The notes under the pieces were generated by a model, which worked only from the letters and a program-made list of their open reading frames with translations, was not told the DNA's origin and made no database searches. The position numbers and the translations under genes are program-made. DNA of 64,000 bases from the NCBI RefSeq assembly GCF_963662255.1, contig NW_026912187.1, forward strand, positions 248,001-312,000, given 5' to 3'. Position 1 is the first letter of the stretch. Each line of letters starts with the position of its first letter. Of this stretch, positions 28,028 to 64,000 are shown piece by piece. The stretch is from Cinclus cinclus (Eukaryota; Chordata; Aves; Passeriformes; Cinclidae).

Positions 28028-28709
28028 CTGGGTAATGCTAAGTGGGCCTGGCATTGCCAGTGGGAACGGCATACAAAGCGTGCAGCTCAGTAAGGGACTG
28101 TGCGACGGAGGCAGAGACCACCGTGGGGCTGGCATAGTAGTACTGGACCTGGGATGGGGACTGTAGGGCTGGAGGTGAAATCATTCTGGGGTTGGGATAC
28201 GCATGGTGGGGTGGACTTGGAGGCTCTAGGGCAGGGGCTGAAGCGTTGCAGAGCTGGAGCCAAGACGGGGAGGGTGCCCTTGGAAGCTGCAGAAGATTCT
28301 GCTGGCAGAGATGTGGCAAGCCGTGGCTGGAGCTGGAACAGAAGAGCTGGCAGTGAAATAAAGCTTGTGGGTTGACAAAGAGCTGAAATCACTGGGGCTG
28401 GGGAAAAGGGGACTCCAAAATGGCTGAGGCTGAAATCACTGGGGCTGGCATAGGAGCTGCAAGTGGCGCAGACTATGCCGATGGGACACTGAGACTGTAG
28501 GGTTGGGGTGCCGAATTCACTGGAGGCCTGGGCTATTGAGGGTGGGGCTGGCTACTGCGTCTGAGCATGGGACGGGCCGTGTAGGGCTGAAAGGGGCCCT
28601 TTAGGACTGCTTGTGCCACTCTGGCAAGGTATTCCCAGCTGCATTGCTGCCCACCCCTGGAGCATGTCTCCATCGGGGGATGGTTGGAAGGCCAGCAGTG
28701 CTCAATTAC

Positions 28710-28745
28710 CTTTGCATCTGAGGTCAGCTTCAGGATCTTGTCATA
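28710..28745 (-). pseudogene. COMMD4: COMMD4 exon C (36 bp), copy 1
   Basis: This exon encodes exactly 12 codons, YDKILKLTSDAK. The acceptor is CCCCACAG (AG at 28747-28746) and the donor GTAATT (GT at 28709-28708). Both introns are phase 0. The near match to YEKILKLTADAK of mammalian COMMD4 is the strongest single piece of evidence for the gene identity. Confidence 0.85.
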
Positions 28746-28984
28746 CTGTGGGGAAGCAGAGCATCATGGTAAACACCAGCTAACACACTACCTGTGTTAA
28801 TTCTAACAATTCTTACCTGAATATTAACACCAATAACACTTACTATGTATGTTATTTCACTAGTAGAGGTTGGTAGCGTTCTTAACATCGAGGAACATGA
28901 AGAACACGAGACTAATTAATGCTGTTGATTATGCCATTGTAGTGTTGAAACACTTGGCCTCCAGTGCAGTAGCCCCACACTTAC

Positions 28985-29182
28985 CTCGATAGCCTCCCCC
29001 AGCAGGTCCCGCAGCACCGGGGCGCAGATCAGCTCCGGCTTCACCGAGGACTGCGGAGGAGAAGGAGGGGGAGCAGCGGGCCCGCAGCAGGCGGGGGGCT
29101 GGCATGTCAGTATTTTGGCCAGAGCGCCGATCTCGGCCAGCACGCAGTCGGTGCAGTCCAAGTCCCCGCAGAAGGGGAACCG
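28985..29182 (-). pseudogene. COMMD4: COMMD4 exon B (198 bp if read through), copy 1
   Basis: The acceptor CCCCGGCAG precedes 29182 and the donor GTAAGT follows 28985. The 66 codons fall into three parts. Residues 1-23, RFPFCGDLDC to GALAK, are COMMD4-like. Residues 24-44 (29113-29051) are ILTCQPPACCGPAAPPPSPPQ-type filler ending in a pyrimidine tract and CCGCAG. Residues 45-66, SSVKPEL to GEAIE, are COMMD4-like. In other vertebrates the two outer parts are almost contiguous (LAKM-SSVK), so the 63-bp middle looks like a short intron whose 5' GT is missing. It stays open in frame. No ATG lies in frame upstream of RFPF within the exon, so the start must come from an upstream exon. Confidence 0.75.
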
Positions 29183-29273
29183 CTGCCGGGGAAGAGGTGC
29201 CCGGAACCCGCAGCGGACTCCGCACGCCCTCCCCGCTCCGCGGCCCCCTCGCTGCCGCCGACCCTCTCCTCAC

Positions 29274-29477
29274 GAAGTCACCGCCCCTCCCTGGTCCGGG
29301 ATACGAACGCAGAGCCCGACTTTGCCACCCGCAACCACTCCCGGGCAGCCCTTTTAGCCGGGACCTGGGCACGAGAGGTCGGAGAAGGGGAGGGGAGTAT
29401 CGGGAGCGGGACCCAGCGCGACCGCGGACCCTTGGAGCAGCACTGGCTCCTTCCGGCTGAGCGCCCCGCGCTCCCAT
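29274..29477 (-). CDS. Candidate COMMD4 first coding exon, copy 1
   Basis: The only ATG on the minus strand between exon B and the island centre is at 29477-29475. It opens 68 codons (MGARGAQPEG to GRGGDF) and reaches a good donor, GTGAGG at 29273. Splicing to exon B would be in phase (GDF-RFPF). Against this, the mammalian protein begins M-RFRF with the exon ending right after ATG, so a 68-residue extension would be unusual. The stretch is arginine-, proline- and glycine-rich, as CpG-island DNA often reads. The region may instead be untranslated. Confidence 0.3.
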
Positions 29478-29842
29478 GAGCTGCAGCCGCGCAGCTTCCG
29501 GGCCCCGCCAATGCCGGCCCGCCTTTCTCCGCCCTGTCCAATCACAGCCGCCCTATCAATCCGGGCGTGGCCCTGGGCGATCGTTCGCCTGGTGCTCTGC
29601 TCCTGCCGCCGCTGCTTTGGGAGCCGGCGGAGCCTCGTCAGGTGATGCTGGGGCTTGGAAAGGGCGGGGAGAGTTCTGCCAAGTAAACGGGGAGACGGCG
29701 GGCAGCGGGCGGAATCGCAGGAGCGGGCCGTGAGGGGACTGCGGGGGGTCGCGGAACAGAGTGCGGCGGGAAGGGGCGGGCTGGGATTGGCGGAGCCGGC
29801 GCTGCCTCGGGATGTGATTGGCTGGGCTGGCCGGCTATTGCC

Positions 29843-61272: not shown

Positions 61273-61311
<39 letters not shown>

Positions 61312-61976
61312 TGGGAAATGCTAAGTGGGCCTGGCATTGCCAGTGGGAACGGCATACAAAGCGTGCAGCTCAGTAAGGGACTGTGCGACGGAGGCAGAGA
61401 CCACCGTGGGGCTGGCATAGTAGTACTGGACCTGGGATGGGGACTGTAGGGCTGGAGGTGAAATCATTCTGGGGTTGGGATACGCATGGTGGGGTGGACT
61501 TGGAGGCTCTAGGGCAGGGGCTGAAGCGTTGCAGAGCTGGAGCCAAGACGGGGAGGGTGCCCTTGGAAGCTGCAGAAGATTCTGCTGGCAGAGATGTGGC
61601 AAGCCGTGGCTGGAGCTGGAACAGAAGAGCTGGCAGTGAAATAAAGCTTGTGGGTTGACAAAGAGCTGAAATCACTGGGGCTGGGGAAAAGGGGACTCCG
61701 AAATGGCTGAGGCTGAAATCACTGGGGCTGGCATAGGAGCTGCAAGTGGCGCAGACTATGCCGATGGGACACTGAGACTGTAGGGTTGGGGTGCCGAATT
61801 CACTGGAGGCCTGGGCTATTGAGGGTGGGGCTGGCTACTGCGTCTGAGCATGGGACGGGCCGTGTAGGGCTGAAAGGGGCCCTTTAGGACTGCTTGCGCC
61901 TGAAGTGCCCCCCCCACCCCCGTGCCGGCATGTTGCCACTGGGTGTGAGGGCCACCGTAGGGCTGCAGCCGGAAGC

Positions 61977-62013
<37 letters not shown>

Positions 62014-62598
62014 TGGGAAATGCTAAGTGGGCCTGGCATTGCCAGTGGGAACGGCATACAAAGCGTGCAGCTCAGTAAGGGACTGTGCGACGGAGGCAGA
62101 GACCACCGTGGGGCTGGCATAGTAGTACTGGACCTGGGATGGGGACTGTAGGGCTGGAGGTGAAATCATTCTGGGGTTGGGATACGCATGGTGGGGTGGA
62201 CTTGGAGGCTCTAGGGCAGGGGCTGAAGCGTTGCAGAGCTGGAGCCAAGACGGGGAGGGTGCCCTTGGAAGCTGCAGAAGATTCTGCTGGCAGAGATGTG
62301 GCAAGCCGTGGCTGGAGCTGGAACAGAAGAGCTGGCAGTGAAATAAAGCTTGTGGGTTGACAAAGAGCTGAAATCACTGGGGCTGGGGAAAAGGGGACTC
62401 CGAAATGGCTGAGGCTGAAATCACTGGGGCTGGCATAGGAGCTGCAAGTGGCGCAGACTATGCCGATGGGACACTGAGACTGTAGGGTTGGGGTGCCGAA
62501 TTCACTGGAGGCCTGGGCTATTGAGGGTGGGGCTGGCTACTGCGTCTGAGCATGGGACGGGCCGTGTAGGGCTGAAAGGGGCCCTTTAGGACTGCTTG
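57384..62598. repeat. Satellite block 5: 6 complete monomers with partial ends
   Basis: Complete monomers start at 57955, 58658, 59375, 60088, 60787 and 61491 (703, 717, 713, 699, 704 and 702 bp), and a partial from 62193 ends at 62598. The last two monomers before insert 5 have C7AC5 and AAATGC, so insert 5 has a different left context from inserts 1-4. No gene is supported. Confidence 0.98.
59075..59101 (+). repeat. Longest poly-C tract (C27)
   Basis: 27 uninterrupted C residues in a TAATGC-type monomer. Confidence 0.95.
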
Positions 62599-62694
62599 TG
62601 CCACTCTGGCAAGGTATTCCCAGCTGCATTGCTGCCCACCCCTGGAGCATGTCTCCATCGGGGGATGGTTGGAAGGCCAGCAGTGCTCAATTAC

Positions 62695-63462
62695 CTTTGC
62701 ATCTGAGGTCAGCTTCAGGATCTTGTCATACTGTGGGGAAGCAGAGCATCATGGTAAACACCAGCTAACACACTACCTGTGTTAATTCTAACAATTCTTA
62801 CCTGAATATTAACACCAATAACACTTACTATGTATGTTATTTCACTAGTAGAGGTTGGTAGCGTTCTTAACATCGAGGAACATGAAGAACACGAGACTAA
62901 TTAATGCTGTTGATTATGCCATTGTAGTGTTGAAACACTTGGCCTCCAGTGCAGTAGCCCCACACTTACCTCGATAGCCTCCCCCAGCAGGTCCCGCAGC
63001 ACCGGGGCGCAGATCAGCTCCGGCTTCACCGAGGACTGCGGAGGAGAAGGAGGGGGAGCAGCGGGCCCGCAGCAGGCGGGGGGCTGGCATGTCAGTATTT
63101 TGGCCAGAGCGCCGATCTCGGCCAGCACGCAGTCGGTGCAGTCCAAGTCCCCGCAGAAGGGGAACCGCTGCCGGGGAAGAGGTGCCCGGAACCCGCAGCG
63201 GACTCCGCACGCCCTCCCCGCTCCGCGGCCCCCTCGCTGCCGCCGACCCTCTCCTCACGAAGTCACCGCCCCTCCCTGGTCCGGGATACGAACGCAGAGC
63301 CCGACTTTGCCACCCGCAACCACTCCCGGGCAGCCCTTTTAGCCGGGACCTGGGCACGAGAGGTCGGAGAAGGGGAGGGGAGTATCGGGAGCGGGACCCA
63401 GCGCGACCGCGGACCCTTGGAGCAGCACTGGCTCCTTCCGGCTGAGCGCCCCGCGCTCCCAT
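62695..63462 (-). pseudogene. COMMD4: COMMD4 5' gene fragment, copy 5
   Basis: Exon C is 62695-62730, exon B 62970-63167 and the candidate first exon 63259-63462. It is identical in translation to the other copies, including the donor-less segment at 63036-63098. Intron 3 meets satellite at 62598. Confidence 0.85.
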
Positions 63463-64000
63463 GAGCTGCAGCCGCGCAGCTTCCGGGCCCCGCCAATGCC
63501 GGCCCGCCTTTCTCCGCCCTGTCCAATCACAGCCGCCCTATCAATCCGGGCGTGGCCCTGGGCGATCGTTCGCCTGGTGCTCTGCTCCTGCCGCCGCTGC
63601 TTTGGGAGCCGGCGGAGCCTCGTCAGGTGATGCTGGGGCTTGGAAAGGGCGGGGAGAGTTCTGCCAAGTAAACGGGGAGACGGCGGGCAGCGGGCGGAAT
63701 CGCAGGAGCGGGCCGTGAGGGGACTGCGGGGGGTCGCGGAACAGAGTGCGGCGGGAAGGGGCGGGCTGGGATTGGCGGAGCCGGCGCTGCCTCGGGATGT
63801 GATTGGCTGGGCTGGCCGGCTATTGCCTATAAATAGCGTGCGCTGGGGAGGCGGGCGTTAGTTGGGCGGCGCCGAGGAGGCGGAGGCGGCGGCGGTGGCG
63901 GCGAGGGGCGGCGCGGCGGCGGCGAGGGGCGGCGCGGCGGCGGCGAGGGGCGGCGCGGCGGCGGCGAGGGGCGGCGCGGCGGCGGCGAGGGGCGGCGCCG
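62970..64000. promoter_or_regulatory. CpG island with divergent promoter, copy 5 (partial)
   Basis: The TATA box is at 63828-63835. The plus-strand first exon runs off the window before its ATG. Confidence 0.7.
63903..64000 (+). repeat. 21-bp GC minisatellite, long allele without the T variant, copy 5
   Basis: Four full units (63903-63986) plus a partial. The fourth unit has C at 63975 where copies 2-4 have T, so copy 5 belongs to a separate lineage. Confidence 0.9.

What the first reader, a model, noticed from the sequence alone, without database searches (positions are those of the whole stretch)
28614..64000. Composite macrosatellite with a gene-derived bidirectional promoter cassette repeated inside a satellite array
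Five same-orientation cassettes with a CpG island, NF-Y-type CCAAT boxes, a TATA box and COMMD4 5' exons are embedded in a near-identical 0.7-kb satellite. Macrosatellites that carry CpG islands or promoters (DXZ4 and D4Z4 in human) have roles in chromatin and disease, but I know of none built from a COMMD4 promoter. The sequence shows the layout; regulatory function is inference.
Basis: partly seen in the sequence, partly recalled or inferred. Interest (0 to 1): 0.8.

Follow-up and report, generated by a model that had tools for sequence, protein, structure and literature searches.

The report
Chromosome-end satellite with pseudogene promoters
Near the ends of several large contigs of a bird genome, probably a songbird's, a uniform DNA repeat carries many copies of a promoter cut from a dead copy of the COMMD4 gene, with the promoter pointing outward, so the repeat may drive its own transcription, although nobody has tested that.

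Summary
Confirmed and extended. The window is a ~704-bp satellite (73 intact monomers, mean difference 0.09%) with five same-strand ~2.35-kb cassettes holding COMMD4 residues 2-59, a CpG island, paired CCAAT boxes and a TATA box.

In the 1.17-Gb source genome the promoter 31-mer has 137 exact copies and the monomer anchor 1,569. On six chromosome-scale contigs the listed copies lie within 250 kb of a contig end, the TATA-side strand always pointing to that end. At the inner edge of five of five arrays with a COMMD4 hit sits a longer COMMD4 pseudogene; the one read (C196) runs straight into a cassette.

The likely source gene is on contig C16. Against it the cassette lost the start codon and a splice donor and differs at 14.9% of aligned bases, yet has not lost CpG on balance (35 against 33), as expected of an island that stayed unmethylated in the germline. 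The COMMD4-side CCAAT pair is conserved; the TATA half has no match at that locus, so the 'bidirectional promoter' looks like a fusion.

Best reading: a subterminal, promoter-bearing composite macrosatellite with a G-rich strand running outward, TERRA-like in polarity. Transcription, methylation, telomere adjacency and species are untested.

The parts
1..28603 (+). ~704-bp monomer array (672-684 bp levelled, plus variable C and GT runs), no cassette
28614..30950 (.). Cassette 1 (minisatellite 72 bp shorter than in copies 2-4)
43931..46339 (.). Cassette 2
48735..51143 (.). Cassette 3
54972..57380 (.). Cassette 4
62599..64000 (.). Cassette 5, cut by the window end
29274..29276 (-). Position of the COMMD4 start codon: TTC here, ATG before a GT donor in the C16 gene
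   Evidence: alignment and reading
29111..29182 (-). COMMD4 exon 2 relic (24 codons)
29051..29110 (-). COMMD4 intron 2 relic, 60 bp, donor CT; GT in the C16 gene
28985..29050 (-). COMMD4 exon 3 relic (22 codons)
28710..28745 (-). COMMD4 exon 4 relic (12 codons) with donor GTAATT; cassette ends at 28614
29001..30190 (.). CpG island: 139 CpG, o/e 0.91 (cassette flanks 0.21, monomer 0.41)
29508..29542 (-). CCAAT pair (29508, 29538) on the COMMD4 side; both boxes kept in the C16 gene
29786..29821 (+). ATTGG pair (29786, 29817) ahead of the TATA box
29843..29851 (+). TATA box; its 31-base surroundings occur 137 times exactly in the genome
29880..29951 (+). 21-bp GC-rich minisatellite (3.5 units here; 6.9 units at 45196-45340, 50000-50144, 56237-56381)
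30009..30029 (+). Candidate first coding exon of an unidentified plus-strand gene; the two acceptors that I read in the cassette lead to early stops
   Evidence: reading of the sequence
30461..30852 (+). Diverged relative of the monomer inside the cassette
16372..30972 (+). 14.6-kb block (monomers + cassette 1) repeated at 31678-46361
31678..46361 (+). Second copy of that block (monomers + cassette 2)
30973..43920 (+). 18 intact monomers between cassettes 1 and 2; 3, 5 and 7 between the next ones

Best explanation
A subterminal composite macrosatellite in a bird, most likely an oscine songbird. SHOWN: an old DNA-level copy of COMMD4, dead as a gene and joined head to head with another TATA promoter of unknown source, stands at the inner edge of repeat arrays near contig ends; its 5' part recurs as a cassette among near-identical 0.7-kb monomers on its TATA side. 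INFERRED from pattern: unequal exchange and gene conversion multiply blocks within an array, and exchange between chromosome ends spreads the arrays while keeping their orientation. INFERRED: the CpG islands stay unmethylated in the germline and probably still start transcription; the TATA-directed transcript would run outward through the array as a G-rich RNA, with the polarity of TERRA (analogue recalled). Whether such RNA or its R-loops help the array to spread is speculation.
For: Copies: 137 exact promoter 31-mers (100 listed) and 1,569 monomer anchors (100 listed). Position and polarity: C1, C6, C8, C15 at contig starts on the minus strand, C12 and C5 at contig ends on the plus strand, 6 of 6 contigs outward. 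COMMD4 at the inner edge with opposite strand in 5 of 5 (C1, C6, C8, C15, C196); the C196 edge copy is continuous with later COMMD4 exons, no monomer between. Dead gene: start codon and intron-2 donor lost against C16; 8 of 58 residues in 0 of 144 vertebrate proteins. Island: gene CpG 33, of which 24 kept, 4 lost to TG/CA, 5 otherwise; 11 CpG only in the cassette, 6 of them TG/CA in the gene; 53 of 355 columns differ. Skew.
Against: No RNA, methylation or chromatin data. No telomere repeat was seen beside an array: none in the fetched pieces of C1, C6, C8, C12, C15 or C196, and C8 has 33.5 kb of other sequence outside its array. Three of the chromosome-scale contigs start or end inside the array (C1, C15, C12), so the array may simply break the assembly. 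The six orientations are not independent if arrays descend from one another. The CpG comparison is not polarised by an outgroup; GC-biased conversion could keep CpG. Strict NF-Y matches are not above chance.
Confidence: 0.65

Rival explanations
1. Inert passenger: the repeat spreads by exchange between chromosome ends and the promoter has no activity; CpG is kept by GC-biased gene conversion.
For: Near-perfect homogenisation; dead gene. Five of the eight residue changes go from A/T to G/C if I assume the likely ancestral codons (inference).
Against: Only the island keeps CpG (0.91) while cassette flanks (0.21) and monomers (0.41) do not, in the same array; no net CpG loss at 14.9% divergence from the gene.
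Confidence: 0.27
2. The satellite grew out of repeat-like sequence next to the TATA promoter, in what was an intron, rather than being an older satellite that received the cassette. (A question of origin; it can hold together with the best explanation.)
For: Monomer relative inside the cassette; the monomer is an old dimer; arrays lie on the TATA side of the COMMD4 edge copy.
Against: Relic out of register with its neighbours, and one of 300 trinucleotide shuffles scored 77 against 76. The edge copy was read only to base 68500, so its outer flank is unseen.
Confidence: 0.4
3. Assembly artefact.
For: Very high identity; several array contigs are short (53, 42.5, 163, 218, 529 kb).
Against: 137 exact promoter copies on at least nine contigs with different spacings, minisatellite lengths of 141, 192, 210 and 213 b in the 20 C196 copies fetched, C and GT run differences.
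Confidence: 0.03
4. Array specific to a germline-restricted or W chromosome.
For: Songbird signature; amplified paralogues on the zebra finch germline-restricted chromosome (PMC6884545, passages).
Against: Arrays join chromosome-scale contigs of 22 to 152 Mb, too many and too large for one special chromosome; that paper reports no significant satellite enrichment in germline samples and no COMMD gene in its main text.
Confidence: 0.03

Closest known systems
D4Z4 macrosatellite (human, subtelomeric 4q35 by recall)
   Same: Head-to-tail array mixing heterochromatin-type repeats with a gene-derived promoter-bearing piece (PMC4060068, passages); chromosome-end position.
   Different: One 3.3-kb unit with a conserved DUX4 ORF in each; here a 0.7-kb monomer with irregular cassettes and a dead gene piece.
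TERRA-producing subtelomeric CpG islands (recalled; the paper that I tried is not held)
   Same: GC-rich tandem-repeat CpG-island promoter near a chromosome end, pointing outward, G-rich transcript expected.
   Different: Promoters are repeated tens of times through a satellite and no telomere was seen beside it; no RNA known.
DXZ4 macrosatellite
   Same: Large CpG island array with promoter activity in each human monomer (PMC3491370, passages).
   Different: No CTCF consensus here; the monomer is CpG-poor.
Songbird satellite TleSat09-638 of Turdus leucomelas
   Same: Length 638 bp and 41.2% A+T, not far from 672 bp levelled and 40% A+T here; maps to microchromosomes (PMC11375038, passages).
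   Different: Sequences were not compared; relation unknown.
Human composite repeat arrays (recalled; one search listed two papers, neither read)
   Same: Units assembled from unlike parts.
   Different: Species, unit, source gene.

Membership tests
Macrosatellite / composite macrosatellite | Tandem array of highly similar units over many kb | tested here: met
Macrosatellite / composite macrosatellite | One regular unit over 1 kb | tested here: not met
   ~704-bp monomer; cassette spacing irregular
Subtelomeric repeat | Near chromosome ends on several chromosomes | tested here: met
   Within 250 kb of a contig end on six chromosome-scale contigs among the places listed; 37 of 137 promoter and 1,469 of 1,569 monomer places were not listed, and contig ends need not be chromosome ends
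Subtelomeric repeat | Telomere repeats on the outer side | tested here: inconclusive
   None in the pieces fetched; outer sides not complete
TERRA-promoter-like | CpG-island promoter pointing to the end with G-rich sense strand | tested here: met
   6 of 6 contigs outward; skew
TERRA-promoter-like | RNA made from it | not testable with these tools
   no RNA data
D4Z4-like | Conserved ORF in each unit | tested here: not met
   Longest ATG ORF overlapping cassette 1 is 182 aa and out of the COMMD4 frame; no DUX-type search was made
DXZ4-like | CTCF site | tested here: not met
COMMD4 gene (functional copy) | Start codon, splice sites, full domain | tested here: not met
CENP-B-box satellite | CENP-B box | tested here: not met

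The most novel reading that the evidence does not exclude
A self-transcribing chromosome-end satellite: a promoter captured from a housekeeping gene, dead as a gene but kept as an unmethylated germline CpG island, fires G-rich transcripts outward through its own array at many chromosome ends, and this transcription (through R-loops) promotes the exchange that spreads and homogenises the array and shapes chromosome-end chromatin, a bird counterpart of TERRA built from a pseudogene.
Probability: 0.25. Interest if true: 0.85.

Novelty: new variant of a known kind. Interest (0 to 1): 0.62.

Why it matters
It separates promoter from gene: the coding part has decayed over 14.9% divergence while the CpG island has not lost CpG on balance. 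Because the arrays lie near several contig ends with one outward polarity, one can test whether transcription through a repeat helps it to spread between chromosome ends. No paper held contains COMMD4 together with W chromosome or germline-restricted chromosome; two papers hold COMMD4 and satellite, from titles and abstracts expression studies that I did not read.

Tried and rejected
Monomer 25-mer in viral and prokaryote contigs: 0 hits. tRNA and Rfam scans of the window: none. CTCF and CENP-B consensus: none. Literature: no paper with Tgut716A; listings gave no matching repeat as far as titles and abstracts show; nightingale paper without monomer data in the passages seen. Retroposed origin rejected: introns and promoter present. 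My earlier reading that the ATG at 29477 was the old start codon was dropped once the C16 gene was read. Germline-restricted or W location, at first 0.12, lowered to 0.03, and artefact from 0.07 to 0.03, because; main and novel readings raised for the same reason. In one search the 531 downstream differences of the edge copy are an unaligned shift and are not used; one search gives 8 mismatches and 52 gap positions over 2,278 columns. Source gene of the TATA half not found: one search scored 40 of 146 candidates and all 40 were identical cassettes, so a diverged source could not show.
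Full report
Window. It is a head-to-tail satellite, monomer about 704 bp. 78 anchor sites give 73 intact monomers (695-721 bp), 9 haplotypes after levelling C and GT runs, mean difference 0.09%, maximum 0.44%. The monomer is an old dimer: 53-255 against 410-607 scores 73, shuffle mean 36.6, maximum 56 of 300. Five same-strand cassettes are separated by 18, 3, 5 and 7 intact monomers. Block 16372-30972 and block 31678-46361 differ by 3 substitutions and 7 gaps. The five cassettes are identical over 1,274 bases, so for selection they count as one history.

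COMMD4 piece. Exons at 29111-29182, 28985-29050 and 28710-28745 (minus) encode 58 residues matching human COMMD4 2-59. Eight residues are seen in 0 of 144 vertebrate proteins that align over all 58 positions without gaps; 49 of 193 matching proteins were left out for gaps or partial coverage. In 6 of 6 proteins that read through intron 2 its first codon is V, that is GTN, and a seventh that begins in the intron also begins with V; the cassette has CTG.

Source gene. A search of the source genome (1.17 Gb, 277 contigs; the window is C196:248001-312000) with a crow COMMD4 protein found four exon-like matches on C16:2547763-2549071, 85-96% identical, without stops, and 14 further matches. Its 5' end shows the donor AAAATA|GTTGAG where the cassette has CT, and ATG|GTGGGG where the cassette has TTC and a GT donor (the start codon is my reading). 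In 355 aligned columns 53 differ (14.9%). The CCAAT pair on the COMMD4 side lies in a 70-base stretch 86% identical to the gene. The rest of the TATA half has no match in the 2,401 bases read, except a 19-base inverted match around one ATTGG box. So the two promoter halves were probably brought together; loss of the partner at the C16 locus is not excluded.

Island. 29001-30190 has 139 CpG, o/e 0.91; cassette flanks 0.21 and monomer 0.41 with TG/CA excess. Over the part aligned with the gene, the gene has 33 CpG: 24 kept, 4 TG/CA, 5 other in the cassette; 11 CpG are in the cassette only, 6 of them TG/CA in the gene. There is no net loss. A copy methylated in the germline through this divergence should have lost many CpG. 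The comparison is not polarised, and GC-biased conversion is an alternative. Motif counts against 1000 shuffles, in a stretch chosen after the motifs were seen: 3, 13, 39 and 102 reach the observed CCAAT, TATAAA, GC-box and strict NF-Y counts.

Genome layout. The promoter 31-mer has 137 exact copies, 82 plus and 55 minus; the 100 listed lie on C1 (2), C8 (23), C12 (20), C15 (11), C78 (7), C118 (1), C145 (12), C188 (23) and C196 (1 shown). The monomer 25-mer has 1,569, first 100 listed on C1, C5, C6 and C8. The junction 26-mer has 58, on C1, C8, C15 and C196 only, so other arrays have another junction. The reversed control patterns give 0 in all three. On chromosome-scale contigs the listed places are: C1 (152 Mb) from base 488, C6 (118 Mb) at 33-34 kb, C8 (74 Mb) 33.6-243 kb and C15 (22 Mb) 0.7-96.5 kb, all minus; C12 (29.524 Mb) 29.33-29.52 Mb and C5 (118 Mb, one anchor 212 kb from the end), plus. 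So 6 of 6 point outward. C1 and C15 start inside the array and C12 ends inside it. No run of telomere repeats was seen beside an array in the pieces fetched; telomere repeats exist in the assembly, for example at C5:11, the other end of C5.

Inner edge. COMMD4 matches lie just inside the array, on the strand opposite to the TATA side, on C1 (13.8 kb), C6 (36.5-37.2 kb), C8 (244.3-244.9 kb), C15 (98.4 kb) and C196 (65.5-66.1 kb): 5 of 5 contigs with both. Other partial COMMD4 matches on C5, C7 and C18 had no listed monomer nearby, the list being capped. C196:65001-68500 shows a cassette (8 mismatches, 52 gap positions) continuous with later COMMD4 exons and no monomer. The cassette is thus the 5' part of an older, longer COMMD4 copy. 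Of 20 C196 cassettes fetched, 19 are identical over 1,231 bases and one differs at one base; three of the 20 lie in the window; the edge copy differs at three.

Organism. AIEYD at residues 45-49 occurs in 16 of 147 proteins bucketed, all named after birds that I recall as oscine songbirds; three further oscines read PIEYD or AIEHD, and one python has D at residue 49. Lyrebird, scrub-bird and Australian treecreeper read AIEYE. The taxonomy tool confirms Passeriformes for two species only.

Reading. A dead COMMD4 copy joined to a second promoter sits near chromosome ends; on its outer, TATA side a satellite with repeated cassettes has spread, probably by exchange between ends. Monomer stretches have GC skew 0.28-0.37 on the TATA strand, and stretches on C8 and C15 show the same outward G-richness. 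A transcript would be G-rich and run outward, as TERRA does (recalled). Inert spread is the main rival. No CTCF consensus and no CENP-B box were found in the window.

Limits. No RNA, methylation or reads. Lists of places are capped (100 of 137 and 100 of 1,569). Contig ends need not be chromosome ends. Monomer relatives inside the cassette are moderate evidence: 0 of 300 dinucleotide and 1 of 300 trinucleotide shuffles reach the score.

Noticed in passing
L063 (C7:1-300) and L032 (C8, just outside the array): The start of C7 and the outer flank of the C8 array share recognisable sequence, which suggests duplicated chromosome-end DNA; seen by eye, not aligned.
   Followed up: no
C12, C78, C145, C188: These arrays carry the promoter 31-mer but not the exact left junction of the window's cassettes, so a second cassette type exists.
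   Followed up: no
monomers starting 2279, 10038, 15668, 53303, 59523 (CpA) and 25529, 40848 (TpG): One CpG of the monomer varies as both products of methyl-CpG deamination, while few other single-base variants exist.
   Followed up: partly
30973, 51166 and 46362, 57403: Monomers right of cassettes 1 and 3 share one signature and those right of cassettes 2 and 4 another, so block lineages are interleaved.
   Followed up: no
C18:233-234 kb, C7:184 kb, C7:66.76 Mb, C5:22.0 Mb: Further partial COMMD4-like copies in the genome, several near contig ends.
   Followed up: no
L052 (C16:2548900-2551300): The source gene has its own, different GC-rich minisatellite directly upstream.
   Followed up: no
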